Source: Candidatus Peregrinibacteria bacterium (lineage in GTDB: Bacteria > Patescibacteriota > Gracilibacteria > UBA1369 > JABINC01). From it: a stretch of DNA of 47,309 bases. Position numbers and translations under genes: made by a program. The notes under the pieces are model-generated. The model ran no database searches. It was not told the origin of the DNA and worked only from the letters and a program-made list of their open reading frames with translations. Each line of letters begins with the position of its first letter. The first letter of the stretch is position 1. Shown here piece after piece: positions 8,079 to 36,658 of the stretch. Location: contig JABINC010000012.1 in assembly GCA_018697675.1 (NCBI GenBank), positions 1 through 47,309 of the forward strand, in the 5' to 3' direction.

Positions 8079-8552
8079 ATGGCTTCGATTCTTCTAATTT
8101 ATGGGACGACTGGTGGGAACACTGAGATCGTGGCTGAGGCTGTGTCTGATGGGGTTGAGGAGCGAGGGCATGAGGTTAAGTTGATGAGGATTGAGAAGTA
8201 TTTGCTTGATGAGGTTTTTGCTGAAATTGAGAAATGTGATGTGATGATGATTGCAGCGCCGACTTATGGGCATGGAGAGATGCAGATGGATTTGAAGCCT
8301 TTTTTGAAAGAGCTTTCTGGACGTGATTTAAAAGGTAAGAAATGCATAGTTGTGGGGCTTGGAGAAGCCAAATATGACGATCATTACCATATAGCTTCAG
8401 TGCCGATTTTGGAGGAGCTTTTGACTGGGGTTGGGGCGGAGTTAGTGTTTCGGCCGCTGCGTATCAGTGGAAATCCGGCGACCCATTTGGATCGGTTGAT
8501 TCCTCTTTGGATTGGGCAGTTTTGTGACTTTTTAGAACACTCTGGAACATAA
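8079..8552 (+). CDS. flavodoxin
   Basis: The 157-residue protein starts with a beta strand and the FMN phosphate-binding loop YGTTGGNTE. It continues with the two other FMN-contact loops, one at APTYGHGEMQ and one at GLGEAKYDDHYHIA. The length fits a short- to medium-chain flavodoxin, a soluble one-electron carrier. It lies 10 bases upstream of the 2-oxoacid oxidoreductase genes, which implies it is their electron acceptor. The 81-base gap after nth holds a possible extended -10 (TGGTAGGAT at 8045-8053) without a good -35. Confidence 0.88.
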   Translation: MASILLIYGTTGGNTEIVAEAVSDGVEERGHEVKLMRIEKYLLDEVFAEIEKCDVMMIAAPTYGHGEMQMDLKPFLKELSGRDLKGKKCIVVGLGEAKYDDHYHIASVPILEELLTGVGAELVFRPLRISGNPATHLDRLIPLWIGQFCDFLEHSGT

Positions 8553-8562
8553 ATTTAAAACT

Positions 8563-10344
8563 ATGAGTCGGACTACAATAAAAATAGCGGGAGAAAGTGG
8601 AATGGGGCTTGTGAGCGTCGGGACGATTTTGTCGAAAGCTTTGAAGCGACTTGGATTTTATATAAATCTTGATCGAGAATATCCATCTCTCATAAAAGGT
8701 GGGCATTCGAATGTGCAGATTGATTTTAGCAAGGAGCCTTTGCATTGTTTGTCGCAGGAGGTGGATGTGGTGATGGCGCTGGATAGAGTGGGGTTGGATG
8801 AATATGTGGATACGATTCGTGAAGGTGGAATTCTTGTGCATGGTTATGAGAAGCGCGAAAGACTGAAAGATTTGGAGGAGCGAGCAGCGACTCGTGATGT
8901 AAAGTTGGTTTATCTGCCTGGTCGGCAGGTGGCTTTTTTTCATGGAGGAAATGAGCTCATGGTAAATATGGTGCTTCTTGGGATGATGTGGAAAGTGCTT
9001 GGATTTGATTTGAAAGTTTTGGAAGATCAGGTGAGTGAGCAGTTTGCTTCGAAGCCGGATCTTTTGAAAATTGATTTGGAGATTTTGAGGACTGGGTACG
9101 CGGGTGAGTTTGCGTGTGAGGGTAGTGATGTGGAGAAAGTTGAATTTCCTGAGATGGAAATTGAGGTGCCTGAAGAGGTGCCAGAAACAATTTTGCTAGA
9201 TGGAAATCATGCGATTGCTCTGGGAGCTGTGCAATGTGGAGTGCGTGGATATTTTGTGTATCCGATGAGTCCGGCGAGTTCGATTTTGACGCATTTGGCG
9301 TTGATGGCAGAGAAGACTGGAATGGTGGTGAAGCAGGCGGAAGATGAGATCACTGCGGCTCAGATGGCATTCGGAGCGATGTTTGCGGGGACCCGTGCGT
9401 TCACCGGGACTTCCGGCGGTGGTTATGATCTGATGACCGAAACAATCACTCTTGCGGGGATGACAGAGACTCCGCTTGTTACCGTGGTCGCACAGAGACC
9501 AGGGCCTGCAACAGGGCTTCCTACTTGGACGGGGCAGGGCGACCTCAATCTCGCAATTCATGCTGGGCATGGTGAATATCCAAAAATTGTTGTGGCAGCT
9601 AGTGATCAGAATTCTTGTTTTGAATTGATTCAACATTCATTTAATTTGGCAGAAATGTTTCAGGTACCGGTGATTTTCTTAACAGAGAAAGTTGTTGCAG
9701 AAACCAAGTCGACAGTGCCAACTTTTGCCACAGGTGATATTGAAATTCATCGCGGACTTGTCATGGATGAAGAAGAACTTCAAAACCTTGAAAGAACGGA
9801 TCGATTTAAAATTACTGAGAGTGGAGTTTCAAAAAGATGGGCTCCTGGGAGTTCAGAGACCTACTATTTTGGGAATGGAGATGAGCACTTGGAAGATGGT
9901 CGATTGACAGAGGAGGCGGACACGAGTAGGGCTATGTATGCCAAGAGAATGAAGAAAATGGATGCGATTTTCAATTGTCTGCCGGAGCCAGAAGTTTATG
10001 GTGTAAATGAAAAGGCTGAGATCTCGTTTATTGGCTGGGGGAGTACGAAAAATGCAATGAAAGATGTGATAAAAGAATGTGCGGCTGATGATATAAAAGT
10101 GAATTATTTGCACTTCGAATATGTGTATCCATTGAAAGTTGATATGCTGAAAAAATTCATAGCTAGGAATAAAAATGTCTGTCTGATCGAGGGGAATTAT
10201 ACTGGTCAGTTCGGAGATTTGATTAAATTAAAACTTCAAGATGAAGGAGTCTTGTTCAAATTCAAAAAACGATTTTTGAAATACAATGGGCGACCATTTT
10301 TCCTTGAGGAAACGATGCAATTTATTATTGAAAATAAACTATGA
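8563..10344 (+). CDS. 2-oxoacid:acceptor oxidoreductase, fused gamma-alpha subunit
   Basis: This 593-residue subunit has an N-terminal gamma domain at about residues 1-185 (GESGMGLVSVGTILSKAL, YPSLIKGGHSNVQI) joined to an alpha pyrimidine-binding domain at about 210-593. The alpha part shows FVYPMSPASSI, the catalytic-face glutamate region QAEDEITAAQMAFGA and TGLPTWTGQGDLN. The order is that of KorA-type enzymes, which oxidatively decarboxylate a 2-oxoacid with CoA to an acyl-CoA and reduced carrier. Pyruvate or 2-oxoglutarate cannot be separated from sequence alone. No ferredoxin domain is present. The stop overlaps the start of the beta gene by ATGA. GC skew changes within the gene at about 9.5-9.8 kb. 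Confidence 0.92.
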   Translation: MSRTTIKIAGESGMGLVSVGTILSKALKRLGFYINLDREYPSLIKGGHSNVQIDFSKEPLHCLSQEVDVVMALDRVGLDEYVDTIREGGILVHGYEKRERLKDLEERAATRDVKLVYLPGRQVAFFHGGNELMVNMVLLGMMWKVLGFDLKVLEDQVSEQFASKPDLLKIDLEILRTGYAGEFACEGSDVEKVEFPEMEIEVPEEVPETILLDGNHAIALGAVQCGVRGYFVYPMSPASSILTHLALMAEKTGMVVKQAEDEITAAQMAFGAMFAGTRAFTGTSGGGYDLMTETITLAGMTETPLVTVVAQRPGPATGLPTWTGQGDLNLAIHAGHGEYPKIVVAASDQNSCFELIQHSFNLAEMFQVPVIFLTEKVVAETKSTVPTFATGDIEIHRGLVMDEEELQNLERTDRFKITESGVSKRWAPGSSETYYFGNGDEHLEDGRLTEEADTSRAMYAKRMKKMDAIFNCLPEPEVYGVNEKAEISFIGWGSTKNAMKDVIKECAADDIKVNYLHFEYVYPLKVDMLKKFIARNKNVCLIEGNYTGQFGDLIKLKLQDEGVLFKFKKRFLKYNGRPFFLEETMQFIIENKL

Positions 10345-11267
10345 CATGTGACCCGAAAAACAATTGTACGGAATATCTGAAAGGCCTTGCTGAAAAGAGG
10401 GCGCAATATGCGTCATTTGATAATGAAGAGAAAATTACGTGGTGCTCTGGCTGTGGAAACATGGGAATCCAGAATGCTCTCAAGCGTGCCTTTTCTTTTG
10501 AAGGACTGGGCGTCAAAGATTTGCTTCTTTGTTATGATATCGGTTGCAATGGGAATGGATCTGACAAGATGGGAACGTATTCACTTCATGGATTGCACGG
10601 ACGAATTATTTCTGCGGCGGCAGGTGCGGCCGTGGCAAACACAAACCTCAAAGTGATAGCAATTGCAGGTGATGGCGGAACTATGAGTGAGGGAATAAAT
10701 CATCTGGTGCACGCAGTTCGAAATGATTACCCGGTTTTATTTGTTCTTCATAATAATCAAAATTACGGGCTGACAACTGGTCAAGCTTCAGCAACTACGC
10801 GAAAAGGTTACGCTATGAATGGTTCTCCCGATGGAGTGACGACAGAGCCTATGAATCCATCTGAATTTGCACTTGGTCTCGAGCCTTCATTTGTCGCTCG
10901 GACTTTTTCTGGAGATATGAAACATATGACAAAGATTTTCCGTGAGGCGTTAAATCACAAAGGTTTTGCATTTGTGGAAGTTATGCAGGTTTGCCCAACT
11001 TACAACAAAGCCACTCCTTCGAAATGGTTTTGGGATCGTCTAAAATTTGTAGAGGATATAGAAGGTTACAACTCTGCGGATCTCGAAATGGCTCGTGAAG
11101 CAGCTCATGATATGAATGATAGTCTTGCTATGGGAATTCTCTATCGAGACCCAACAATGCCAAGTTTTATGGAACGTCTAAAATCCCGGGAAGGTCTTGA
11201 AACCAGCATCCTTGTGGATGAAGTGAAGCATTATGATGTTTCAGGTTTTTTGGAGGAGCTTCAGTGA
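10341..11267 (+). CDS. 2-oxoacid:acceptor oxidoreductase, beta subunit (ThDP and [4Fe-4S])
   Basis: The 308-residue subunit holds thiamine diphosphate and one iron-sulfur cluster. The cluster ligands expected in this family are visible: a CxxC pair in TWCSGCGNMG, a cysteine in YDIGCNGNGSD and one in EVMQVCPTYN. The ThDP/Mg2+ loop is IAIAGDGGTMSEG followed by HNNQNYGLTTGQ. It is translationally coupled to the alpha gene (ATGA overlap). Its stop overlaps by seven bases the convergent gene at 11261-11635. With the flavodoxin it should give a complete acyl-CoA forming unit that delivers low-potential electrons. Confidence 0.93.
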   Translation: MTCDPKNNCTEYLKGLAEKRAQYASFDNEEKITWCSGCGNMGIQNALKRAFSFEGLGVKDLLLCYDIGCNGNGSDKMGTYSLHGLHGRIISAAAGAAVANTNLKVIAIAGDGGTMSEGINHLVHAVRNDYPVLFVLHNNQNYGLTTGQASATTRKGYAMNGSPDGVTTEPMNPSEFALGLEPSFVARTFSGDMKHMTKIFREALNHKGFAFVEVMQVCPTYNKATPSKWFWDRLKFVEDIEGYNSADLEMAREAAHDMNDSLAMGILYRDPTMPSFMERLKSREGLETSILVDEVKHYDVSGFLEELQ

Positions 11268-15828: not shown

Positions 15829-15857
15829 ATTTTGGACTAATGTCAGAGGTATGTCAA
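15829..15857 (-). promoter_or_regulatory. predicted promoter for 15046-15801
   Basis: TTGACA (15857-15852) overlaps the TGA stop of sufE. After 17 bases comes CAAAAT (15834-15829), a weaker -10. The start would be about 20 bases before ATG 15801. Confidence 0.5.
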
Positions 15858-16267
15858 CACTTGATAGTGTAATCTTTAATTCTCTGAATTATCGAATAAA
15901 GCCCATTGGCGCGAGTTTGGGAGAGGTGTTCTGCGAGCTTGATGCGGTCTATGAAATACAGTTCTGCGTTTTGGATTTCTTTTGGAGGTTGATTGTTGAA
16001 GATGCGTAAAATTAAGGCGAGTAGGCCGCTTGTGATCAGGGCGTCGCTTTGACCCTGGAGGTGCAAAGTAGCGTTTTGTGAGCTAATGTGTAGCCATACT
16101 TTTGACTGGCATCCTGGGACGAGGGTGTCTTCTGTTTTTAATTTTTTTGGTAGAGGAGGTAGTTCCTGGCCTAGGTTGATTAAGTGTTCATATCGGTCTT
16201 CCCAATTATCGAACAATTCGAATTCTTTAATTATTTCGTCCTGGATTTGGTTGATTGTTTTTGTCAT
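15854..16267 (-). CDS. sufE: SufE sulfur acceptor for the cysteine desulfurase
   Basis: The 137-residue protein is SufE rather than the zinc-type SufU. It has the family pattern WEDRYEHLINLGQELPPLP, the active cysteine in VPGCQSKVWL at about residue 53, and the C-terminal LSQTRANGLYSIIQRIK. SufE takes persulfide sulfur from SufS and passes it to SufB. Its start overlaps the SufS stop by ATGA, so the pair is translated together in about equal amounts. Confidence 0.93.
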   Translation of the reverse strand: MTKTINQIQDEIIKEFELFDNWEDRYEHLINLGQELPPLPKKLKTEDTLVPGCQSKVWLHISSQNATLHLQGQSDALITSGLLALILRIFNNQPPKEIQNAELYFIDRIKLAEHLSQTRANGLYSIIQRIKDYTIKC

Positions 16268-17499
16268 GAAAGTAATGCGAGATTTTTTTTGAGAGCCTCT
16301 ATGAATGTATCAATTTCTTCTAAAGTGTTGTAGCAGGCGAATGAGATTCTGACTGTGCCTGGGATCTTGAAATAGTCCATTAAGGGTTCTGTGCAATGTT
16401 GACCTGTGCGTACTGCTATGCCGTATTTGTCGAGAAGGGTTCCTATGTCGTATGGATGGATTGAGGCGGATGTTTTGGGATTGTGGGCAGTGAATGATAG
16501 TACCGGACCCTTGTTTTTAGCTTCTCCGATTATTCGAATTCCTTCGATTTTTTGAAGTTCCTTTGTGGCGTGTTCTAGTAATTCATTTTCGTGTTTTTGG
16601 ATTTCTTGGAGGCTTGTTTCTTGGAGGAATTTTATAGCTTCTGCGAGGCCAATTGCTCCGGCGATGTTGGGAGTACCTGCTTCGAATTTGTATGGTGAAT
16701 TCTTGTAGTCTGAGCGTTCTAAAGTCACACGTTCAATCATGTCGCCGCCTCCTTTGTATGGGATCATTTCAGATAGGATTTCATCTTTTCCATATAGAAC
16801 TCCAATGCCGGTTGGACCGTACATTTTGTGGCCAGAAAAGCAGTAGAAATCTGCATTGAGATCCTGCATGTCGAGATTTATGTGCGGTGTCGCCTGAGCT
16901 CCATCGATTAGTACGAGGGTGTTATTTTCGTGAGCTAATTTTATAATTTCTTTGATTGGATTGATTGTTCCGAGTGTGTTTGACATGTGCGTTATTGCGA
17001 CCAGGCGGGTTTTTTCTGAGAGTAAATTTTTGTAAGCTTCTATATCGAATTCACCTTTGTCTGTGACGGGAATTACTCGGATAGTCATGCCGGTCAAAGC
17101 GGATAACATTTGCCAAGGGACGAGATTTGAATGGTGTTCTGCAACTGAGATTATCATCTCATCTTCTTTCAAAATATTTCTTCTTCCAAATGTCATTGCG
17201 ACTAGATTGATCGCTTCTGTGGTGCCGCTTGTGAATACGATTTCTTTCGGATCTGCATTTATGAAATTTGCCACAGTTTTCCTTGCGCCCTCGTATAGGT
17301 CAGTTGAATTTTGGCTTAATGTATGAACTCCTCTGTGGACATTTGCATTATGATTTTTGTAATAATCGCTGACTGCATTTATGACGCTGAGTGGCTTTTG
17401 AGTTGTTGAAGCATTGTCGAAATAAACGAGCGGATGTCCATTCATTTTTCGTTCTAGGATTGGGAACTTTTGTCTGATTGTTTTTGGGTCAAATGTCAT
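16264..17499 (-). CDS. sufS: SufS cysteine desulfurase (class II, PLP)
   Basis: This 411-residue enzyme converts cysteine to alanine and enzyme-bound persulfide. The PLP lysine is in CFSGHKMYGPTG and the catalytic cysteine in AVRTGQHCTEPLM. The N-terminus DNASTTQKP and the motif HRGVHTLS are typical of SufS. I chose ATG 17499 because it forms an ATGA overlap with the sufD stop; an in-frame ATG at 17517 would add six residues. The downstream partner is sufE, also ATGA-coupled. Confidence 0.96.
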   Translation of the reverse strand: MTFDPKTIRQKFPILERKMNGHPLVYFDNASTTQKPLSVINAVSDYYKNHNANVHRGVHTLSQNSTDLYEGARKTVANFINADPKEIVFTSGTTEAINLVAMTFGRRNILKEDEMIISVAEHHSNLVPWQMLSALTGMTIRVIPVTDKGEFDIEAYKNLLSEKTRLVAITHMSNTLGTINPIKEIIKLAHENNTLVLIDGAQATPHINLDMQDLNADFYCFSGHKMYGPTGIGVLYGKDEILSEMIPYKGGGDMIERVTLERSDYKNSPYKFEAGTPNIAGAIGLAEAIKFLQETSLQEIQKHENELLEHATKELQKIEGIRIIGEAKNKGPVLSFTAHNPKTSASIHPYDIGTLLDKYGIAVRTGQHCTEPLMDYFKIPGTVRISFACYNTLEEIDTFIEALKKNLALLS

Positions 17500-18149
17500 G
17501 AGTAAATATGTAAGCAATCTTTTTTGAATTCTTTTAGTTTTGTATCTGGGAGATGAATTTTGTCCAGGACTTCTGAGAGGAATGAAAGCGTGAGAAGTTC
17601 CTTTGCTTTGTGTTCGCTGATTCCGCGGGAGCGCATATAAAATAATGTATCTTCATCGATTTGGCCACTCGTTACTCCGTGACGGCAAATTACGTCTTCT
17701 GCAAATATTTCGAGTTTTGGGAGAGCTTTTACTTTTGCTCCTTCAGATAAGAGTAATGTTTTTGTTTCTTGAGTTGCTTCAGTGCCAGCAGCTTCTTTGG
17801 CGACGTATATATTTCCTTCGAAATTTCCTTGTGAATTGTCGTCAAGAATTGCTCTGTAAATCTGTGAACTTTTACAGTTCTTTTTCAGGTGTTTTATTTG
17901 AATTTTACTCGCAGCTTTAGCTCTGCCTTTTAGGATATATAAGCCATAAACTTTTGCTTCTGAATTTTCTCCTTCTAGGGTAATTTCAACTTCTCGACTT
18001 GTGTCTTTTTCTTCGGTTTGAATGTCATAAATTATGAGGGAAGCTCCTGCCATTACAGAAATTTTCAGAGACATTTTATCCTCTTCGAGGGTTATTGTTT
18101 CTGATTTGCCGGTAGGAATTTGAAGTGTTTTTTTAATCATTTTTATCAT
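17496..18149 (-). CDS. sufD: short SufD scaffold subunit
   Basis: The 217-residue protein is the SufBD beta-helix core with the C-terminal signature. That signature is LEIFAEDVICRHGVTSGQID, including the conserved histidine that helps form the SufBC2D cluster site, and then LFYMRSRGISEHKAKELL. It is about half the length of E. coli SufD (423), because the N-terminal helical domain is missing. It is ATGA-coupled to sufC upstream and to sufS downstream. Calling it SufD rather than a second SufB rests on gene order and on the complete SufB at 19465-20925. Confidence 0.88.
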   Translation of the reverse strand: MIKMIKKTLQIPTGKSETITLEEDKMSLKISVMAGASLIIYDIQTEEKDTSREVEITLEGENSEAKVYGLYILKGRAKAASKIQIKHLKKNCKSSQIYRAILDDNSQGNFEGNIYVAKEAAGTEATQETKTLLLSEGAKVKALPKLEIFAEDVICRHGVTSGQIDEDTLFYMRSRGISEHKAKELLTLSFLSEVLDKIHLPDTKLKEFKKDCLHIYS

Positions 18150-18892
18150 GATTTTAACCAGTCGTATCCTTTGCGTTCGAGCTCGATCGCCAATTCTTTT
18201 CCTCCTGATTTTACAATGCGTCCATCGTGCATTACGTGGATATAGTCAGGTTTGATGTAGTCGAGCAGGCGTTGATAATGTGTGACAATGATGATTGCGT
18301 TGTCTTCTGATCGTAGGCGGTTCACGCCGTCTGCGACTACTTTTAGAGCATCGATATCCAGTCCTGAATCGGTTTCATCCAAAATCGCGAGGGTTGGTTC
18401 AAGTACTGCCATTTGGAAAATTTCGTTTTTTTTCTTTTCTCCTCCGGAAAATCCTGAGTTTAGGCCTCGTTGCATGAGGCTTTCATTGACTCCTATTAGT
18501 TCGTTTTTTTCCTTCGCGAGTTTTATGAACTCTGCGGCGGACAGTGGCTCTTCTCCTCGGTATTCACGAATTTCATTTAGTGCAGTTTTTAAGAAATTCA
18601 TAGTGTTTACTCCGGGGATTTCTACTGGATATTGAAATGCCAGAAAAACCCCTTCTCTTGCGCGTTGCTCGGGGCTTAATTCGAGTAAGTTTTTTCCATT
18701 GAAAGTAACGCTCCCTTCGGTCGCGCTGTATTTAGGTTTTCCTGCGAGAGTTGAAGCGAGAGTGCTTTTCCCAGTGCCGTTTGGGCCCATAATTGCATGA
18801 ACTTCACCTTTGCGGACCTCAAGATTGAGGCCTTTTATTATTGGAGAAGTCGAATCATCTGCTTTGATATGTAAATCCTTGATTTGTAGCAT
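18146..18892 (-). CDS. sufC: SufC ATPase of the SUF complex
   Basis: The 248-residue ABC-type ATPase has Walker A GPNGTGKST, the signature SGGEKKKNE, and Walker B LAILDETDSGLD with the SufC-specific DSGLD. It drives the conformational change of SufB-SufD during cluster assembly. It is the first gene of a tightly coupled sufCDSE run. About 570 bases separate it from sufB, and that space holds an opposite-strand gene. A possible -10 (TATACT at 18932-18927) lies 34 bases upstream, with no good -35. Confidence 0.96.
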   Translation of the reverse strand: MLQIKDLHIKADDSTSPIIKGLNLEVRKGEVHAIMGPNGTGKSTLASTLAGKPKYSATEGSVTFNGKNLLELSPEQRAREGVFLAFQYPVEIPGVNTMNFLKTALNEIREYRGEEPLSAAEFIKLAKEKNELIGVNESLMQRGLNSGFSGGEKKKNEIFQMAVLEPTLAILDETDSGLDIDALKVVADGVNRLRSEDNAIIIVTHYQRLLDYIKPDYIHVMHDGRIVKSGGKELAIELERKGYDWLKS

Positions 18893-19042: not shown

Positions 19043-19468
19043 ATGACAGCTGAACGAAGGCCAAAAAGTAGAGCGGAGGGGAGATTGACTACCGCTGATA
19101 TGAAGAAATTATCTCCTTTGGTTGCGCTTGCTTTGGCGCTTGCGGCAGGGGCAGTTCTTATTTTCACTGGAGTTGTGCGTGAAAGAATTAAAGAGGGGGT
19201 GTTTTGCATAGAAGGTTTTACGCAAATTCAGGATCCAAAGTCTGGTGATTTGGTTGGTATAGAGGTTAAGACAACTTCAGGGTTAACATTTGTTGTTGCC
19301 CGTGAGTTACTTGAAGATCTTTCTCAGATCCCTGAAAATGACACTCATTGGATGTTTGCTTATGATCCATCTGGAATCGATTGCCTTTCTTTTAATGCAA
19401 ATAATTGTTTTGAAGCCGTTTCCTTAGGGTTTGAAGAAGAATATTGTCGTGAAGTTCCTTTTCTTTAG
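19043..19468 (+). CDS. unassigned single-pass membrane protein on the opposite strand inside the suf cluster
   Basis: The 141-residue product is not recognised. It has a basic, 20-residue N-terminus, one membrane segment at about 24-45 ([17 protein letters not shown]) and an outside domain of about 95 residues with four cysteines, which could form two disulfides. The topology, basic inside and cysteines outside, fits an exported domain held by an uncleaved signal anchor. It lies between sufB and sufC but is read the other way, and its last four bases overlap the sufB stop. Composition is like its neighbours. Confidence 0.65.
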
Positions 19469-20925
19469 CCGACTGACCCTTCCAACTTCAATTCCAGTAG
19501 TTTTCGGGCTTCGGCGGCGAATTCGAGTGGCAGGTGAGTTAATATGTCTCGGCAGAATCCATTTACAATTAGGGAGACGGCTTTTTCTGTGTCTACTCCT
19601 CTTTGGTTGCAGTAAAAAATCTGGTCTTCTGAAATCTTTGAAGTAGTGGCTTCGTGTTCTGTTGTTGCGCTTTGGCAGTCGTTTTCAACTTTTGGGATTG
19701 TGTGTGCGGAGCAGGCGTCTCCTATAAGTAGTGAATCACATTGTGAATAATTTCTGGCGTTTTCTGCAGTTGGTGCTACTCGGACGAGCCCTCTATATGT
19801 ATTTGAACTGTGCCCTGCGGAGATGCTTTTTGAAATTATTGTACTTTTGGTATTTTTTCCTATGTGGATCATTCGACTTCCGGTGTCGGCTTGTTGGTGA
19901 TGCGAGGTGAGGGCGACTGAATAAAACTCTGAAGATGAATTATCTCCTTTCAAAATTGTGCTTGGGTATTTCCATGTGATAGCTGATCCGGTTTCGACTT
20001 GGGTCCATGAGATTTTTGAATTTTCGCCTTTGCAGATTCCTCGTTTGGTTACGAAGTTGTAGATGCCGCCGAGGCCGTGCGCGTCGCCGGGGTACCAGTT
20101 TTGTACTGTTGAATATTTTACTTCTGCATTAGCTTCGGTAATTATTTCGACAACCGCTGCATGCAATTGATTTTCCGGTCTCGCTGGGGCGGTGCAGCCT
20201 TCGAGATAACTCACATAACTATCTTCTTCTGCAATTATGAGGGTGCGTTCGAATTGCCCAGTGTTGGCTGCGTTGATTCGGAAATATGTAGAGAGCTCCA
20301 GTGGGCAGCGAGTTCCTGCGGGAATGTAACAAAATGATCCATCAGAAAATACTGCGGCGTTGAGGGCTGCGTAGTAATTGTCATCTTTTGGCACAACTGT
20401 TCCGAGGTGTTTTCTTACTAGTTCCGGGTGGTTTTTGACTGCCTCTGAAAATGAACAAAATATAATTCCTTTTTCTGCGAGGCTTTTTGTAAAAGTTGTT
20501 GCTACTGAGACTGAGTCGAGTACTGCGTCTATTGCAACTCCTTTTGAGTTGGCGCCTTTTGTCTCTACTCCCGCGAGAGCTTCTCTTTCTTTTAATGGGA
20601 CTCCGAGGCGTTCGAAAGTGCGAAGAAGTTCTGGGTCTGCTTCGTCGAGTGATTTTAGTTTTTTCTTTGGAGCTGCGTAATAGATGATTTCTTGAAAATC
20701 GATTTTAGGGTAGGTGATATTTGCCCAAGTGGGCTCTGTCATTTCGAGCCATTTTTTGTACGCATCAAGCCTCCATTTAAGTAGCCAATCCGGCTCATCT
20801 TTTTTATCTGAAATAAACCGAATAATATCTTCATTCAAACCCTTCGGTGCAAACTCAGTTTCAATATTGGACGTGAATCCGTATTTGTATGATTCCTCTG
20901 TGATGTGCTTTAGGTCTTGGGCCAT
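19465..20925 (-). CDS. sufB: SufB Fe-S cluster scaffold
   Basis: The 486-residue protein is full-length SufB. The conserved stretches [60 protein letters not shown] and [20 protein letters not shown] are all present, the last holding the cysteine and glutamate that receive sulfur in studied SufB proteins. It builds [4Fe-4S] clusters with SufC and SufD. It starts three bases after the trxB stop, so trxB and sufB share one transcript. An opposite-strand gene overlaps its 3' end by four bases. Confidence 0.96.
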
Positions 20926-20928
20926 TTT

Positions 20929-21882
20929 TTAATTTTCCAACTTTTTCTTATTCACATATCCGTATGCGGCGTAGGCCGCGGCGGCTCCTTCGGCTGCACA
21001 GATTACTCCTTGTTTCCATTCAGAATCCGTGACGTCTCCGGCTGCGAAAACTCCAGGGACTGAGCTTCTTGAGTAGCGGTCGATTATGATTTGTTTTCGT
21101 CCGTCAAGGTTACAGCCAAGGTCAATTCCTAGAGCTGAGCGGGCTTCGCCGCCGATCTCTACGAAAACACCTTGAGCTTCGAATGTTGAAGTTTCAGAAG
21201 TTAAAGCATCTTCGATTAGGAGTTCTGTGATTACATTTTCATCGCCTTTGATTTCCTTGATTACAGTGTTGAGCATAAGATCGATCTTTGGGTGCGCTTC
21301 AACACGCTGTGCATTGATTGGTTCTGGGCGAAGATTTTCTTCTCCTCTTCTGTACATGATTGTCACATGCTCGGCATGTTCTGCCAAGAATAATGATTCT
21401 TTGAAAGCTGAGTCGCCACCACCTACAACTATGACTTTTTTTCCGCGGAAAAGTGGGCCATCACAAGTTGCGCAGTATGAGACTCCTTTGTTTGTGTACT
21501 TTGCTTCTCCTGGAACGCCGAGTTTTCTGTGTGCGAGTCCGGTTGCAAGTAGCACAGAGTAAGTAAGTAATTTTTCTCCTTTTGCAGTTTCTACTTCAAA
21601 TATTCCAGCCTTTGTATGAGTGATGTTTGTGACCTTTGTGCTCTTGATTTCTGATTCAACCGATGCAGCATGTTCTATGAATTTCATTCCAAGTTCAAAT
21701 CCTGAAATTGATTTGTATCCTGGGTAATTTTCTACGAGATGAGTCTGTGTAATCGTTCCACCTTGGAGCTCCCCGATAACAAGCGTCTCCATTCCGAAAC
21801 GTTTTGCGTAGATTGCCGAGGCTAGTCCGGCCATTCCAGTTCCGACAATTATTATGTCGTATGTTTTGTTTGCTTCTGTCAT
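20929..21882 (-). CDS. trxB: thioredoxin reductase (NADPH)
   Basis: The 317-residue flavoprotein has the N-terminal FAD motif GTGMAGLASAIYAKRFG, the redox-active CATC near residue 138, the NADPH motif VVGGGDSAFKE and the C-terminal FAD motif GVFAAGDVTDSEWKQG. It reduces thioredoxin with NADPH. It heads the trxB-sufB unit, which ties thiol reduction to Fe-S assembly. A GTGA-N6-TCAC palindrome centred 41.5 bases before the predicted start controls it (21914-21957). No Shine-Dalgarno is present. Confidence 0.95.
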   Translation of the reverse strand: MTEANKTYDIIIVGTGMAGLASAIYAKRFGMETLVIGELQGGTITQTHLVENYPGYKSISGFELGMKFIEHAASVESEIKSTKVTNITHTKAGIFEVETAKGEKLLTYSVLLATGLAHRKLGVPGEAKYTNKGVSYCATCDGPLFRGKKVIVVGGGDSAFKESLFLAEHAEHVTIMYRRGEENLRPEPINAQRVEAHPKIDLMLNTVIKEIKGDENVITELLIEDALTSETSTFEAQGVFVEIGGEARSALGIDLGCNLDGRKQIIIDRYSRSSVPGVFAAGDVTDSEWKQGVICAAEGAAAAYAAYGYVNKKKLEN

Positions 21883-21913: not shown

Positions 21914-21957
21914 AGTATAAGAGAATTTTCTCAAAAATGAAGTGATAATGGTCACTT
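21914..21957 (-). promoter_or_regulatory. predicted Crp/Fnr-type class II activated promoter of trxB-suf
   Basis: A perfect palindrome with 6-bp arms AAGTGA (21940-21945) and TCACTT (21952-21957) and a 6-bp spacer matches the Crp-type core GTGA-N6-TCAC. On the minus strand the -10 TATACT lies at 21919-21914, which puts the start near 21907 and the palindrome centre at -41.5. No -35 hexamer is needed at a class II site. It lies between the stop of the 21961-23682 gene and the trxB ATG. Confidence 0.72.
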
Positions 21958-28887: not shown

Positions 28888-29598
28888 ATGAACCCTCAGA
28901 ATACTGACATCAATGAAGTTTTCGAAAATGAAGAGAAGAAGAATCGTTTTCGTGTAGTGGTTTTTGGGTCTGCGCGGACTAAGCCTGGAGACAGCGCTTA
29001 TGAAGAGGTGTTTAAACTTGGGAAGAAAATAGCTGATAAGGGTTTTGATGTGGTCACAGGTGGTGGTCCCGGAGCTATGGCGGCCGCAAATCTCGGACAT
29101 GCAGATTCTGAAAACGAGGGGGTTGTGGATTCCTATGGAATAAATATTAAGCTTCCTTTTGAGCAGAGTGTGAATAAGGGCGTAGAGATTGCACATGAAC
29201 ATGAGCGATTTTCAACTCGGTTGGATGAATTTATGTCGCTTGCGAATGTAGTTGTTATTACTCAGGGTGGAATAGGAACACTACTTGAGCTTTTTTATAC
29301 TTGGCAACTTATACAAGTTAAGCAGATGAGTCATATTCCAATTGTGGTCGTGGGTGATATGTGGGATGGACTTTTTGAATGGATGAAACGCGATATGTTG
29401 TCTCGGGGAATGTTTAGCGAAGAGGATCTGGATGTGATTAATTTTGCAGATAATTGTGAAGAAGCTATAGAAATTATTGAAGATTGGCATTCAAAATGGG
29501 AAGAATTAGGTGGGGATGATTGTTTGGATTGCAAAAAATATAAGCTCAAAGGTAAGCCTTATAAAGTTCTTTTTGATCAGAGTGAGGAGGGTGCTTAA
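28888..29598 (+). CDS. LOG-family (TIGR00730-like) nucleotide-binding Rossmann protein
   Basis: The 236-residue protein has the LOG-type fold with VVFGSARTKPGD, the loop GGGPGAMAAANLG and a variant of the catalytic PGGxGTxxE motif, here QGGIGTLLE. Family members cleave the N-glycosidic bond of nucleoside monophosphates, including AMP and cytokinin nucleotides. The proline-to-glutamine change at the start of the motif is unusual, but the glycines and glutamate remain. Its stop faces the stop of 29602-29928 across a shared hairpin. Confidence 0.85.
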   Translation: MNPQNTDINEVFENEEKKNRFRVVVFGSARTKPGDSAYEEVFKLGKKIADKGFDVVTGGGPGAMAAANLGHADSENEGVVDSYGINIKLPFEQSVNKGVEIAHEHERFSTRLDEFMSLANVVVITQGGIGTLLELFYTWQLIQVKQMSHIPIVVVGDMWDGLFEWMKRDMLSRGMFSEEDLDVINFADNCEEAIEIIEDWHSKWEELGGDDCLDCKKYKLKGKPYKVLFDQSEEGA

Positions 29599-30711: not shown

Positions 30712-31585
30712 GCTGATGCTCTTTCTTCAATATTAAAAGCATTCCTGTCGCTATTGGTATGAATCCGAGGAGTTGCCAGATGGTTGGAATCTCTCCCAGG
30801 ATTAAAAATGCGAAAATTATTGTAATTGCTGGGAGCATTGTTAGGAAGGAAGTCGCCTTGGTGATAGGTATTCTTTTTATTCCTTCTAGCCAGCCGATTT
30901 TTTGAATCCCAAAAAATAAAACACCATTTATTAATAGGAATACGATAGATGGTTTTAATGCTGAGTAGGGAATACTTGGCTCTAAATTGATCGCAAGAAT
31001 AAGTATTATAGTTCCCGCTATGATGCTCCGTACTAACATCATGAAGTATGAGCTTACTTTTTCACAAGCTCTCTTTTGAAAGAAATTTCCGATTGGTCCG
31101 AAGAATACAGCACTTAGTATAAGTAGGTCTCCAATGTGTAGTTCCATTTCTCCGGGGAGCAGAATTATTAGTGCACCGATACCCATTATGATTGTTCCGA
31201 ATATTTTTCTAAAGGAGTGATTCTCTTTGAACCATATTTTAAAAATTACGAATGCGAAAAATATTTCCATTAAGCTTATTATGCTAGCGTTACCTGCGGT
31301 TGTGTATTTTAAGCCGAGAAACATCAATGTATAAAGAATAGTTCCATTGATTAAACTTCCTAAAATTATATCTAGCCAAGCTTCTTTGATTTTGAATTCA
31401 TGCCAGAGGCGTTTGTAGGTGATTATTATTGTGAAGAAGAGTGCGGCGATGAGAATTGAGTAGGCGGCTGAATAAAGTGGAGTTAGTGACGAGTAACTTA
31501 AAATTACAACTATGGGGAAAAATGCCCATATAAAATTTGAACTTATGATACTTAATTCTCCTTTGCGTTGTTCTGAGAATTTCAT
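30704..31585 (-). CDS. EamA/DMT-family transporter
   Basis: The 293-residue membrane protein has ten hydrophobic segments arranged as two EamA repeats of five, with FIWAFFPIVVIL in the first and the second repeat ending ILGEIPTIWQLLGFIPIATG. DMT transporters export or import small metabolites; the substrate is unknown. Its ATG overlaps the gnd stop by one base (TAATG), so it is the last gene of the pentose-phosphate operon and may carry a sugar or sugar acid linked to it. Confidence 0.85.
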   Translation of the reverse strand: MKFSEQRKGELSIISSNFIWAFFPIVVILSYSSLTPLYSAAYSILIAALFFTIIITYKRLWHEFKIKEAWLDIILGSLINGTILYTLMFLGLKYTTAGNASIISLMEIFFAFVIFKIWFKENHSFRKIFGTIIMGIGALIILLPGEMELHIGDLLILSAVFFGPIGNFFQKRACEKVSSYFMMLVRSIIAGTIILILAINLEPSIPYSALKPSIVFLLINGVLFFGIQKIGWLEGIKRIPITKATSFLTMLPAITIIFAFLILGEIPTIWQLLGFIPIATGMLLILKKEHQPI

Positions 31586-32520
31586 TATTTCTTTGTTACT
31601 GCATGGCCGCCGAATCCGTTTCGGATTGCGGCTATTACACGTCCTGCAAAGGATGGATTTTCTTGGCTTTCTTCGCGGACTTGTAAGGCCAATTCTATGC
31701 TGGGAGCTGGGGTTCCTTGCTCATGTGCCTGATCTGCAGTCCACTGACCTGTCTGGCCTCCGCCGATTTTTCCAATTAGACTTTTGAGCCTTGGATCATC
31801 TTTGAATTTTTCTTCTGCTAGTTCGAGCATCCATGAACGAATCACTGATCCGTGATTCCACACTTTTGAAATTTGATGAAAATCTAATTGATCTGAATAT
31901 GGTCCCTCATGCAAAATATGAAACCCTTCTGCATAGGCTTCCAAGATTGCGTACTCAATTCCGTTGTGAACCATTTTCACAAAATGTCCTGATCCGATTT
32001 CTCCCATATGTCCGTATCCATCTTCCATTGCAATCGCTTCAAATAACCACTCCGTTTTCTCGAAAACTTCTTTGTTTCCGCCTATCATCAGGCACGCACC
32101 ATTTCGAGCGCCTTCCATTCCTCCGGATGTTCCGCAGTCCAAAAATCCGATTCCTTTTTCTTTCGCTTCTTCGTAGTGTTTTATCGCTTCTTTGTATTGG
32201 TTGTTTCCTCCATCTATGATGACGTCTCCTTCGGCGAGAAGTGGCAGAAGTTCTTGGAAGGCTGTTTCAGTTGGTTCGAGAGAGGGTAGGTACATAATGA
32301 TTGTGCGAGGTCCTGTGAATGCGTTTGAAAGTTCTTCGTATGTTTTTACAGCTATTGGTTTTGATTCTTCTGAGGGTGAGAGAAGAGAAGCTTCTTCAGC
32401 AAATTTCACCGTTTTTTCATGTGTGCGATTGTATGCAATTACTTTAAATCCTTGTTCAGCTAAATGAAGTGCGATGTTGCGCCCCATTTTCCCGAGGCCA
32501 ATTATTCCGATTTCTTTCAT
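31585..32520 (-). CDS. gnd: 6-phosphogluconate dehydrogenase, short form
   Basis: The 311-residue enzyme oxidatively decarboxylates 6-phosphogluconate to ribulose 5-phosphate. It shows the dinucleotide fold GIIGLGKMGRNIALHLAEQG, NRT after the second strand, which in this family suits NADP, GGNNQYKEAIKHY, and the substrate motif CGTSGGMEGARNGACLM. It is about 310 residues against 470 for the long form, as in the YqeC/GndA branch. It is the only gene in the window with a clear Shine-Dalgarno, AGGAGA six bases before the ATG, and it lies 16 bases after zwf. Confidence 0.92.
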   Translation of the reverse strand: MKEIGIIGLGKMGRNIALHLAEQGFKVIAYNRTHEKTVKFAEEASLLSPSEESKPIAVKTYEELSNAFTGPRTIIMYLPSLEPTETAFQELLPLLAEGDVIIDGGNNQYKEAIKHYEEAKEKGIGFLDCGTSGGMEGARNGACLMIGGNKEVFEKTEWLFEAIAMEDGYGHMGEIGSGHFVKMVHNGIEYAILEAYAEGFHILHEGPYSDQLDFHQISKVWNHGSVIRSWMLELAEEKFKDDPRLKSLIGKIGGGQTGQWTADQAHEQGTPAPSIELALQVREESQENPSFAGRVIAAIRNGFGGHAVTKK

Positions 32521-32536
32521 GATATTCTCCTTTTAT

Positions 32537-33949
32537 TTATATTTGATGCCATTTTCTGATCGGATCCAGAAATTCGATTTCTCCATCTGGACCTTCTGAT
32601 CCATCTGAATATTTTTTAAGTGGAATGTTTTGGTTCTCTGCTTCTTTCAAAACTTTGTCGATGAAATGCCAGCATGCGATTACTTCGTTGAAACTTAGAA
32701 AATGAATTCTTTCTCCGTTCATAACATCCAAAAGTAGGCGGCCGTGTTCTGGTAGGCAATCATCCCCGAAGCATGCGAGTGATTCGCTTGGGGACATTTG
32801 ATGATACTCGTGATATGTGCCGCCGCGTTTGTTGGTGATTTTGAAATAAACATGGCCTTCCGGTTGTAGTTCGATTATCAGTTTATTGCTTTTGAGCCCT
32901 TTGATTGATTCTTGAAAACTGAGTTTTTTGAGAACAATTGTGATGTATGTGCTTTTGCGATTCATCATTTTTCCTGTGCGGATGTAAATTGGAACTTTCG
33001 CCCAATCCGTTTGATCGATGCAGAGTTTGAGTGCTGCGAAGGTCTCTGTTTTTGAATCTTCGGGAATGTCTTTTTCTTTTGTGTAGTTGTCGTATTGTCC
33101 GAGTAGTAGAAATTTTTCCGGATTGAAAGTCAGTGCGGATAAAATGTGATATTTTTCTCTATGAACCGATTCTGCGTTAAGATGATTTGGCATAGACATC
33201 GTGACCAGTGCCAGTAGCTGAAGTAAGTGAGATTGAACCATGTCTTTTATAATTCCTACTTCGTTAAAATATCTTCCGCGTTCTTTGATTCCGAATGGTT
33301 CGAAGCTTGTGATTTGGATGTATTCGATGAGCTGTCCTTTGAGCAAGTGATTGATAATTGAGTTTGTGTATCTCATTGAAAGTATGCTTTGGACTGATTC
33401 TTTTCCTAGGTAGTGGTCGAGTAGGTAGACATTGTCTTCGTCGAAATGTTCTTCCAAAATTGCGAACATGTCTCTGGCCGTTGCCTCATCTCCTCCAAAT
33501 GGTTTTTCAATTGTCAGGCGCATGTCAAAATGCTCTTTGAAAGGGCTTAAATTGATGCTGATGTCGTTGAATGCTGTCGGTGGGACTGAGTAATATGCAA
33601 TTAGCGGAGTCCCTTCGGGAGAGTCTTTTTTTAGTGTGTCTAGAAGTTTTTTGTAATCTGCTGGGGCGTTGTATTGCCCTTGAAAATAATCGATGTGGAG
33701 GAGGAGTTTTTCTAATGCGGATTCATTTGTTTCGTCTCCGAATTTTTCTCGGACGCTGTTTTCGAAAGATTTTTTAAATTCTTCTGTTGTCATCTCTGAC
33801 CTAGCATATCCGTAAATCCAAAAATCTTCTGGGAATCTGTGTTGAAGTGCGAACTCATAGAGAGCTGGAAAAATCTTGAGTTTAGCAAGGTCGCCGGAAG
33901 CTCCGAATAAAATGAATACAAATGGTTCTTTTACATTTTTGGATGGCAT
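32537..33949 (-). CDS. zwf: glucose-6-phosphate 1-dehydrogenase
   Basis: The 470-residue enzyme oxidises glucose 6-phosphate to 6-phosphogluconolactone and makes NADPH. It has FILFGASGDLAKLKIFPALY near the N-terminus and the substrate site DHYLGKESVQSI. Length fits the family. It starts seven bases after pgi ends on the same strand and is followed by gnd. No 6-phosphogluconolactonase gene is present in the window, so the lactone is opened by a distant enzyme or spontaneously. Confidence 0.96.
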   Translation of the reverse strand: MPSKNVKEPFVFILFGASGDLAKLKIFPALYEFALQHRFPEDFWIYGYARSEMTTEEFKKSFENSVREKFGDETNESALEKLLLHIDYFQGQYNAPADYKKLLDTLKKDSPEGTPLIAYYSVPPTAFNDISINLSPFKEHFDMRLTIEKPFGGDEATARDMFAILEEHFDEDNVYLLDHYLGKESVQSILSMRYTNSIINHLLKGQLIEYIQITSFEPFGIKERGRYFNEVGIIKDMVQSHLLQLLALVTMSMPNHLNAESVHREKYHILSALTFNPEKFLLLGQYDNYTKEKDIPEDSKTETFAALKLCIDQTDWAKVPIYIRTGKMMNRKSTYITIVLKKLSFQESIKGLKSNKLIIELQPEGHVYFKITNKRGGTYHEYHQMSPSESLACFGDDCLPEHGRLLLDVMNGERIHFLSFNEVIACWHFIDKVLKEAENQNIPLKKYSDGSEGPDGEIEFLDPIRKWHQI

Positions 33950-33956
33950 GTGTGTA

Positions 33957-35183
33957 TTAATTTTCTAAGTATTTTTTTGTAAGTTTTTTTCCAAGTTCTA
34001 CTCCCGGTTGGTTGAATGCATCGATCTGAAAAAACTCTCCTAAGAATGCGGTTGCTCCTTCGAAAGCCATGAATAATCCGCCGAGATTTTTTTCGTTAAC
34101 CTTGTCTATTTTGAAAGTCATATTAGCTTTTCCATAATCTGTGATTGCGCCTTCTGTCGCTCGTTTTTCGGCGTTAATGAGATGTGCGAATTGTACGTTT
34201 TTTAGAAAGTTTATTTTTTCATGATTCACATCACTGTCGGGAATTTTAATTTCACTTTCATGATTTTCTACTTCCAAAAATATGATCATTTTGTCGCGTG
34301 GGCCTTCGTTATAAAGTTGGACCTGTGAATGTTGATCCGTGGTCCCAAGTGCGCTTACTGGAGTTATACCTTTTCCATCTTTTCCGATACTTTCTGCTAG
34401 CAGTTGACTGTACCAATCTGCAAAAGTTTTTAGTCGATTTGTGTATGGCATCATCACATTTATATTCACTCCTTTTTGGTTGAGCAAGTATTGAATTGCT
34501 GCAAACTGGAAACTCAAGTTTGTATTAAACTCCTCTGATAGGAATTTTCTTGCCATTTCTTGACCTCCTTTGAGAAGGTTTTTTATATCTATTCCGATCA
34601 ATGCTGCGGGGAGTAATCCAACTGCTGTTAGGACAGAAAATCTACCTCCTACGTTTTCTGGAACTGAGAATGTTTTTATATTTTCTTTCTCACCTGTTTC
34701 TCGGAGAAATCCTTCCTTGCCGGTTATAAATACGAAGTTTTCTGAGGCGGTTTTTTCTTTGAAATACATGTACTGAGCGAGGGTTTCTGGAGTGCCGCCG
34801 GATTTGGAAATTACTATGAAGAGAGTGCGATCGTAATTGAGAGTTTCATCTAATTTTTCAATCAAATAAGGGTCTACATTATCGATGATGCGAAGTCGAG
34901 GAGATGCTTTGAAAGGATGAGTTAAAGTGTCTCGGAGGCAAATATTTCCAAGTGCTGAACCTCCAATTCCAAGAATTACAATGTCGTCAAATTGACCTTT
35001 TACTTGCGCGGCATATTCCAAGATTCCTGATGGATCTTCATTTACGATTTCATAAAATCCCTGATCTTTTGCTTTTATGTTTTCGAGATACTTCGCAATT
35101 AAATTTGCCGTATCTTTTAATTCTTCCTCTGTTATCTGAGGATCTTTTGCTTTGAATAGATTTGTGTAGTTAAATTGAATCAT
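33957..35183 (-). CDS. pgi: glucose-6-phosphate isomerase
   Basis: The 408-residue enzyme interconverts glucose 6-phosphate and fructose 6-phosphate. SIS-domain motifs VILGIGGSALGNICLRD and VISKSGGTPETLAQY are clear, and the C-terminal region ends with AFNQPGVELGKKLTKKYL. I chose ATG 35183, two bases after the tal stop; an ATG at 35216 would lie inside tal. It is the compact bacterial form. It returns fructose 6-phosphate from the non-oxidative branch to zwf and permits cycling of the pathway. Confidence 0.95.
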   Translation of the reverse strand: MIQFNYTNLFKAKDPQITEEELKDTANLIAKYLENIKAKDQGFYEIVNEDPSGILEYAAQVKGQFDDIVILGIGGSALGNICLRDTLTHPFKASPRLRIIDNVDPYLIEKLDETLNYDRTLFIVISKSGGTPETLAQYMYFKEKTASENFVFITGKEGFLRETGEKENIKTFSVPENVGGRFSVLTAVGLLPAALIGIDIKNLLKGGQEMARKFLSEEFNTNLSFQFAAIQYLLNQKGVNINVMMPYTNRLKTFADWYSQLLAESIGKDGKGITPVSALGTTDQHSQVQLYNEGPRDKMIIFLEVENHESEIKIPDSDVNHEKINFLKNVQFAHLINAEKRATEGAITDYGKANMTFKIDKVNEKNLGGLFMAFEGATAFLGEFFQIDAFNQPGVELGKKLTKKYLEN

Positions 35184-35185
35184 GA

Positions 35186-35839
35186 TTATTTTTGTAAATC
35201 TTTTACTTTTTCCCAATCTGCCAAAAACTTCTCAACTCCCTGGTCTGTGAGTGGATGATGTAGAAGCTTTTCTAAAATAGCTCCTGGCATGGTACAAACG
35301 TCTGCGCCGATGCGAGCTGAATCTATGACGTGTCTAGGGTGGCGTACACTTGCGACTAGTACTTCTGTATCAAAATTGTAATTTTCATAAATTTGAACAA
35401 TTTCTTGTATTAGGTTCATTCCGTCTTCTGAAATATCATCTAACCTGCCGATAAATGGGCTTACTAAATTGGCTCCGGCTTTTGCGACGAGTAGGGCTTG
35501 TCCTGGGTTGAAAACAAGTGTCATGTTCGTCTTAATCCCTTCTTTTGAGAGGATCGATAAAGCCTTTAGGCCGTTTTCTGTTGTTGGAAGTTTTATATAA
35601 ATATTTTTATGCCAAGCTGCGTATTCTCGAGCCTCTGTCAGCATACCATCAAGATCAGTAGCTAGAACTTCTGTCGAGATCGGGCCATCTACAACTTCTG
35701 TAATTTCCATGATTCGAGTTTTGAGATCCACTCCTTCTTTTGCAATGAGACTTGGATTTGTAGTCACTCCATCAACAATGCCCCATGCAGCGTATTTTTT
35801 TATATCTTCGATGTTGGCTGTGTCTAAGAAAAATTTCAT
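35186..35839 (-). CDS. tal: transaldolase, short TalC/fructose-6-phosphate aldolase-like type
   Basis: The 217-residue protein is the short transaldolase form. It has [17 protein letters not shown], the loop [15 protein letters not shown], the Schiff-base lysine in [11 protein letters not shown] and [14 protein letters not shown]. It transfers dihydroxyacetone units between sugar phosphates, or cleaves fructose 6-phosphate; the two activities are close in this subfamily. It is the first gene of the operon and carries the predicted Crp-type promoter (35870-35912). No Shine-Dalgarno is present. Confidence 0.93.
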
Positions 35840-35869: not shown

Positions 35870-35914
35870 ATTATACAGGTTTCATAAAAAGACTGTAAGT
35901 GATTTATGTCACCC
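35870..35914 (-). promoter_or_regulatory. predicted Crp/Fnr-type class II activated promoter of tal-pgi-zwf-gnd
   Basis: The palindrome AAGTGA-N6-TCACCC lies at 35897-35914, with a perfect GTGA-N6-TCAC core at 35899-35912. On the minus strand the -10 is a perfect TATAAT (35875-35870), predicting a start near 35863. The palindrome centre is 42.5 bases upstream and no good -35 is present. The site lies just after the stop of the Crp-type regulator gene. Confidence 0.75.
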
Positions 35915-35934: not shown

Positions 35935-36585
35935 TTATTTTTCTGCTAAAGCGATTGAACCGTCTTTTGTAGAGATTAGACCTTCTTTTTTGAGGGCGTT
36001 TAGGGCGCGGGTGACGGTTTCTCGTGAGAGACCTGTTAATTGGGCAAGTTTTTCATGTGTAATCTTGCATTCTTTTCGGAAGATTTTTTTCAAAAGGCCG
36101 CCTTTGCATTCTCGGAGTTCGAGTTGATGAACTATTTTTTCTTTTGCATCGTAAAGTCCTCCCTTGAGTTTTCTTTCATATTTTCTGAGGCGTTCTGACA
36201 TATCTCTCAGAAGTCTGATCATGAGGTCTGGTCGAGAATGGAGAATATTCATAAAATCATCAACTTCTAAGATGCAGATGTGTGCGTTTTCTGTAACTTC
36301 GGCAAAATGAGTGTGTTTCTGTGGTTCAAAATGGATGTTTCCGAAGATTGATCCAGGCTTGAGCGTATCCATTATCAGTTTTTTTCCTCTGTAAGAATGA
36401 TACAAAGTAACCTCTCCTTGTTTTAAGATAAATACTGAGTTTGTTTCATCAAAAGGCGTGTAAATAATTTCTTTTTTTACACACTTCTTTTCGGTCATTT
36501 TTGCTCCGATGCGTTTGATTTCTTTGTCCGACATTCCTCGGAAGAGATCCACCTGTTTTAGATACCAAATTTGTTCTGGTGTCAT
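35935..36585 (-). CDS. Crp/Fnr-family transcription regulator without cAMP-binding residues
   Basis: The 216-residue protein has a cyclic-nucleotide-binding-fold domain at about 13-120, a dimer helix at 120-145 and a winged helix-turn-helix at about 150-216. The recognition helix SRETVTR (187-193) carries R, E and R at the positions that read GTGA in Crp. The cyclic-nucleotide cassette is not conserved: FGNIHFEPQKHTHF (81-94) lacks the glutamate and the arginine-serine pair, but has four histidine or acidic residues that might bind metal. Cysteines are at 35, 104, 160 and 173, not as in Fnr. I chose ATG 36585 because a likely -10 overlaps the upstream ATG 36615. It lies just upstream of the operon it probably controls. 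Confidence 0.85.
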   Translation of the reverse strand: MTPEQIWYLKQVDLFRGMSDKEIKRIGAKMTEKKCVKKEIIYTPFDETNSVFILKQGEVTLYHSYRGKKLIMDTLKPGSIFGNIHFEPQKHTHFAEVTENAHICILEVDDFMNILHSRPDLMIRLLRDMSERLRKYERKLKGGLYDAKEKIVHQLELRECKGGLLKKIFRKECKITHEKLAQLTGLSRETVTRALNALKKEGLISTKDGSIALAEK

Positions 36586-36658
36586 ATTCAAAAATTTATG
36601 ATTTTTCGGCCCCATAGTATCACGATTGGGCGCATATTCATACGGTTTTATCCGTCTA

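What the first reader, a model, noticed from the sequence alone, without database searches (positions are those of the whole stretch)
21940..21957. The same palindrome at exactly -41.5 before trxB-suf
A perfect AAGTGA-N6-TCACTT lies before trxB with its centre 41.5 bases upstream of the start predicted from TATACT. I compared gaps across the window and found this core in only two intergenic regions, both in front of redox operons. Together the two suggest a regulon joining NADPH supply, thioredoxin reduction and Fe-S assembly.
Basis: partly seen in the sequence, partly recalled or inferred. Interest (0 to 1): 0.75.

Follow-up and report, generated by a model that had tools for sequence, protein, structure and literature searches.

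The report
Redox regulon of an uncultured bacterium
A short mirror-image DNA site before the thioredoxin reductase gene is very probably the docking place of a CRP-type activator encoded in the same window, which seems to switch on a set of redox and oxidative-stress operons in an uncultured relative of Peregrinibacteria; the kind of switch is known, this regulon is new.

Summary
The palindrome is real. AAGTGATAATGGTCACTT (21940-21957) is perfect, lies in a gap, and is centred 41.5 bases before the start predicted from TATACT. Only one other gap in the window holds the GTGA-N6-TCAC core (35897-35914, before tal); shuffled gaps give 0.017 such sites on average. Its recognition helix (SRETVTR) carries the residues with which E. 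coli CRP reads GTGA. All four orthologs of 52-60% identity, in other families of the order, have a perfect GTGA-N6-TCAC in the gap next to their own gene, before a thioredoxin lipoprotein, followed by ccdA in three. Across genomes, 12 of 13 sites found without using spacing have a -10 box at exactly class II distance (null 6%). Nearly all precede redox genes: trxB, tal-pgi-zwf-gnd, thioredoxin-ccdA, dsbA, thioredoxin-SOD. So the regulon idea is supported, enlarged, and given a candidate regulator. The Fe-S arm is weak: only sufB is clearly in the trxB unit. A same-genus genome keeps the tal site but lacks the trxB site and a detectable regulator. The sensed signal is unknown. New member of a known kind.

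The parts
21940..21957 (-). Activator-type palindrome AAGTGACCATTATCACTT before trxB (core 21942-21955)
21914..21919 (-). Predicted -10 box TATACT of trxB, 22 nt after TCAC; puts the dyad at -41.5
   Evidence: no measured transcription start
20929..21882 (-). trxB, thioredoxin reductase-like (Pyr_redox_2)
19465..20925 (-). sufB (SUFBD_core), 3 nt after trxB
19043..19468 (+). Opposite-strand ORF of 141 codons between sufB and sufC; breaks the presumed trxB-suf operon
   Evidence: no Pfam family above cut-off
15854..18892 (-). sufC, sufD, sufS and SufE-like genes; inclusion in the trxB unit unproven
35897..35914 (-). Second site GGGTGACATAAATCACTT before tal (core 35899-35912)
35870..35875 (-). 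Predicted -10 box TATAAT of tal, 23 nt after TCAC (dyad at -42.5)
35186..35839 (-). tal, transaldolase/fructose-6-phosphate aldolase family
31585..35216 (-). pgi, zwf (G6PD), gnd (6PGD), contiguous with tal: NADPH supply
35935..36615 (-). Candidate regulator, CRP/FNR family (cNMP_binding + HTH_Crp_2), recognition helix SRETVTRAL, Cys45 and Cys114

Best explanation
The palindrome is an operator for the CRP/FNR-family protein encoded at 35935-36615. The dimer reads the two GTGA half-sites with an RETVTR recognition helix. At trxB and tal it sits at -41.5/-42.5, next to a -10 box without a good -35 box, so it most likely activates transcription as a class II activator. The regulon in this genome is trxB-sufB, tal-pgi-zwf-gnd, thioredoxin lipoprotein-ccdA, dsbA and probably peroxiredoxin-SOD, that is NADPH supply, thiol reduction and peroxide/superoxide defence. 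Shown by sequence: sites, spacing, gene contexts, orthologs, helix. Inferred: binding, activation rather than repression, and induction by oxidative or thiol stress. The effector is unknown, and cAMP is unlikely.
For: Site and spacing. The regulator lies beside the second site and has CRP-type domains above Pfam cut-offs. Its helix aligns with CRP RETVGR. All four orthologs of 52-60% identity (G076, G087, G061, G054) have a perfect GTGA-N6-TCAC in the gap beside the regulator, or one small gene away in G076, before a thioredoxin lipoprotein, followed by ccdA in three; chance is about 0.05 per 3.6 kb locus at the rate. G010 (RETVSR) has a one-mismatch site at the right distance before the same genes. 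Three orthologs with RVTVTR helices (G048, G004, G044) have none beside the regulator. 12 of 13 sites found without spacing have TANNNT at 22-23 nt (null 0.057, P about 1.6e-14). The full-architecture pattern gives 15 hits against 1 control in the five regulator genomes, and 35 against 34 in 94 others. New hits from that pattern precede thioredoxin-DUF3179-YaaA-SOD in G076 and thioredoxin-DUF3179-SOD in G087. In G000 the gene-preceding core sites are those of trxB, tal, thioredoxin-ccdA, peroxiredoxin-SOD and dsbA.
Against: No binding or expression data. G001 (same genus, 97% complete) has a tal site with correct spacing but no detectable regulator or HTH_Crp_2 protein, and no site at trxB, peroxiredoxin or sufB. 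The G000 peroxiredoxin site lacks a -10 at 22-23 nt. tal and trxB sites are missing in G061 and G010, and in G054 apart from an off-spacing one-mismatch match at tal, so membership is lineage-specific. The architecture pattern was written after seeing most of the sites it counts: only 4 of its 15 hits were new, and 2 of those lie in coding sequence.
Confidence: 0.82

Rival explanations
1. Same operator and regulator, but the protein represses (or is a dual regulator) and oxidation relieves it.
For: The site touches the -35 region; the effector is unknown; CRP/FNR proteins can repress.
Against: Spacing to the -10 is fixed at 22-23 nt in 12 of 13 sites, as expected for contact with polymerase at class II promoters (PMC7192510); a repressor needs no such fixed distance. 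At trxB and tal no TTGACA-like -35 is visible where it should be (by eye).
Confidence: 0.12
2. The sites are bound by some other factor, and the CRP-like gene is a neighbour by chance.
For: G001 has the tal site without a detectable regulator. Two further weak cNMP-domain matches exist in G000.
Against: Site presence tracks the regulator's helix type across families; the site lies beside the regulator gene in five genomes; the helix predicts the half-site. The window protein is the only HTH_Crp_2 match in G000.
Confidence: 0.05
3. Chance palindromes, promoted by hindsight.
For: The bare core is not enriched genome-wide (20 against 18 control).
Against: Gap enrichment, recurrence at orthologous operons, and fixed spacing.
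Confidence: 0.01

Closest known systems
SdrP (TTHA1359) of Thermus thermophilus and DdrI of Deinococcus radiodurans
   Same: CRP family, RETVT(K/R) helix, GTGA-type palindrome with 6-nt spacer, likely class II activator; SdrP is described as answering to oxidative stress (PMC8465061). DdrI binds without cAMP (PMC11253593).
   Different: Only distant sequence similarity (SdrP structure 2zcw E about 1e-6, weaker than CooA or CRP); no fixed T before GTGA here; target list not compared gene by gene; effector independence untested.
E. coli CRP (CAP), class II promoters
   Same: Fold, recognition-helix residues, GTGA-N6-TCAC core, -41.5 position.
   Different: cAMP contact residues changed in the alignment (Glu72, Arg82, Thr127, Ser128); targets are redox genes, not catabolism.
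FNR
   Same: Superfamily; links redox state to genes.
   Different: No N-terminal cysteine cluster; helix is RETVTR, not the FNR type; site is GTGA-N6-TCAC, not TTGAT-N4-ATCAA.
CooA (C. hydrogenoformans)
   Same: Best single-sequence match among solved structures (E 2e-14).
   Different: The invariant His103 does not align with the CooA haem histidine (the histidine's identity is from memory); no CO-oxidation genes seen near the sites.

Membership tests
CRP/FNR superfamily | cNMP-binding-like domain plus Crp-type winged HTH | tested here: met
   PF00027 and PF13545 above cut-off; model matches CRP-family structures
cAMP-dependent CRP | RETVxR recognition helix and GTGA-N6-TCAC site | tested here: met
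cAMP-dependent CRP | cAMP contact residues Glu72, Arg82, Ser83, Thr127, Ser128 | tested here: not met
   alignment to CRP: Glu72 aligns with Asn, Thr127-Ser128 with Tyr-Glu, Arg82 not kept; only position 83 is conservative
FNR | Fe-S cysteine cluster and FNR-type helix/site | tested here: not met
   sequence and alignment; site type
SdrP/DdrI group | Orthology | tested here: not met
   2zcw (SdrP) ranks below CooA, CRP, GlxR and NtcA
SdrP/DdrI group | DNA binding without effector | not testable with these tools
   needs protein
Class II CRP-type promoter | Dyad at about -41.5 with -10 box | tested here: met
   22-23 nt spacing in 12 of 13 sites; starts predicted, not mapped
Class II CRP-type promoter | Activation by the bound protein | not testable with these tools
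   needs in vitro transcription

The most novel reading that the evidence does not exclude
The regulator is a thiol-switch member of the CRP family. Cys114, invariant in all ten orthologs, and Cys45, present in all seven outside the RVTVTR group, would sense oxidation directly or through the neighbouring thioredoxin-CcdA system, making this a dedicated redox activator of a Patescibacteria lineage, with relatives (RVTVTR helix) that have shifted to another DNA site.
Probability: 0.25. Interest if true: 0.65.

Novelty: new member of a known kind. Interest (0 to 1): 0.55.

Why it matters
Gene regulation in the small-genome Patescibacteria is almost unmapped, since few can be grown; the paper searches made here found no regulon described for Peregrinibacteria. 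A site, a candidate regulator, a fixed promoter geometry and a coherent gene list make one of their regulons testable with purified parts, and hint how such cells meet oxygen.

Tried and rejected
Raw enrichment of the palindrome in the window or genome: none. cAMP or FNR-type sensing: the contact residues and the cysteine cluster are absent. CooA-type haem histidine: not aligned. A simple 'no regulator, no site' rule: broken by the G001 tal site. A shared new palindrome for RVTVTR-type regulators: nothing consistent. Single-sequence scan of genome contigs: no relatives; the alignment scan worked and gave Peregrinibacteria/Gracilibacteria names. Architecture hits in G001:C24, G076:C43, G087:C110, G087:C52, G076:C68 and G061:C2 lie in coding sequence and were discarded.

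Full report
What is there. trxB is on the minus strand, the site reads AAGTGACCATTATCACTT towards it, and TATACT starts 22 nt after TCAC, which places the centre at -41.5 by the usual rule. The second site, before tal, has the same GTGA-N6-TCAC core with one more base of spacing. In dinucleotide-shuffled gaps of this window such a core appears 0.017 times on average, and never twice in 2,000 trials. Raw counts over the whole window or genome are at chance level, so the claim rests on place and geometry.

The missing actor. Just upstream of the second site ends a CRP/FNR-family gene (35935-36615, minus strand). Its recognition helix, SRETVTRAL, aligns with CSRETVGRIL of E. coli CRP, whose arginine-glutamate-arginine triplet reads GTGA (established knowledge; also PMC11253593). 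The predicted model, of moderate confidence (mean pLDDT 78), matches CRP-family structures.

Other genomes. The window is one contig (C5) of a 1.46 Mb draft genome. Named relatives of the regulator are Candidatus Peregrinibacteria and Gracilibacteria. Orthologs of 52-60% identity occur in four other genomes of the order. In all four a perfect GTGA-N6-TCAC lies in the gap beside the regulator (in G076 one small opposite-strand ORF away), in front of a thioredoxin-fold lipoprotein, followed in three of them by a ccdA/DsbD-like membrane gene. The window's genome has the same pair elsewhere (C69), again behind a GTGACATATATCAC. These sites were found by the core alone. Chance gives about 0.05 per locus of that size, so four of four is roughly 5 in a million. 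A sixth genome (G010, helix RETVSR) has a one-mismatch site at the right distance before the same genes. Three orthologs with an RVTVTR helix have no such site beside the regulator.

Geometry. Of 13 sites found without using spacing, 12 have TANNNT at 22 or 23 nt after TCAC; upstream regions give this 5.7% of the time (P about 1.6e-14). The consensus towards the gene is GTGACAWWAATCACTT-N20/21-TANNNT. This matches class II CRP promoters, where the activator sits at -41.5 (PMC7192510). In 99 genomes the full pattern gives 15 hits against 1 control in the five genomes with a close ortholog, and 35 against 34 in the rest. Most of the 15 were known when the pattern was written. Of the four new ones, two lie in coding sequence and two lie before thioredoxin-DUF3179-YaaA-SOD (G076) and thioredoxin-DUF3179-SOD (G087) operons.

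The gene list. In the window's genome the gene-preceding core sites are those of trxB-sufB, tal-pgi-zwf-gnd, thioredoxin lipoprotein-ccdA, peroxiredoxin-SOD and dsbA. A further copy at the end of contigs C4 and C49 is not clearly before a gene. In G076 the sites precede thioredoxin-ccdA, tal-pgi-tkt, trxB, thioredoxin-DUF3179-YaaA-SOD and one LOG-family gene; one more lies at a contig end with its gene missing. The peroxiredoxin site lacks the standard -10 distance.

Weak points. (1) G001, of the same genus and 97% complete, keeps a well-spaced tal site, but has no trxB site, no ccdA pair and no detectable regulator. An assembly gap, a recent loss or another regulator could explain this. (2) The Fe-S arm rests on sufB following trxB by 3 nt; an opposite-strand ORF and 572 nt separate sufB from sufC, and the G076 trxB has no suf genes behind it. 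(3) Of the 30 trxB loci whose upstream regions were scanned, only G000 and G076 have the site. (4) No start site, binding or expression has been measured.

Mechanism and comparison. The best reading is a class II activator of redox genes. It works like SdrP of Thermus, an oxidative-stress activator with nearly the same helix and site (PMC8465061), but it is not an ortholog. cAMP sensing is unlikely because the contact residues are changed. Cys114 is invariant and Cys45 is present in all seven orthologs outside the RVTVTR group, which makes a thiol switch possible but untested.

Verdict. Observation confirmed; interpretation partly supported and extended; a new regulon of a known kind.

Noticed in passing
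window 19043-19468 (+): A 141-codon opposite-strand ORF with a membrane-anchor-like start sits between sufB and sufC and overlaps the sufB stop codon; in G001 sufB and sufC are adjacent, and extra ORFs lie between trxB and sufB instead.
   Followed up: partly
L218 1916-1929 (G001:C43): The same-genus genome has GTGATATCAATCAC with a -10 at 23 nt before tal, although no CRP-like regulator was found in it.
   Followed up: partly
L084, L085, L086: Regulator orthologs with RVTVTR instead of RETVTR recognition helices lack the palindrome beside the regulator; possibly a natural change of DNA specificity.
   Followed up: partly
G000:C4:36-49 and G000:C49:27696-27709: Identical sequence with a GTGAGTATTATCAC core at two contig ends, probably an assembly repeat or overlap.
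   Followed up: no
L080 14964-14981 (G076): A well-spaced site precedes a LOG-family (lysine decarboxylase-like) gene; a homolog in the window (28888-29598) has no such site.
   Followed up: no
window 8563-11267: The two adjacent ORFs look like a 2-oxoacid:ferredoxin oxidoreductase pair, just after a flavodoxin-like ORF (8079-8552); read from the translations, not tested.
   Followed up: no
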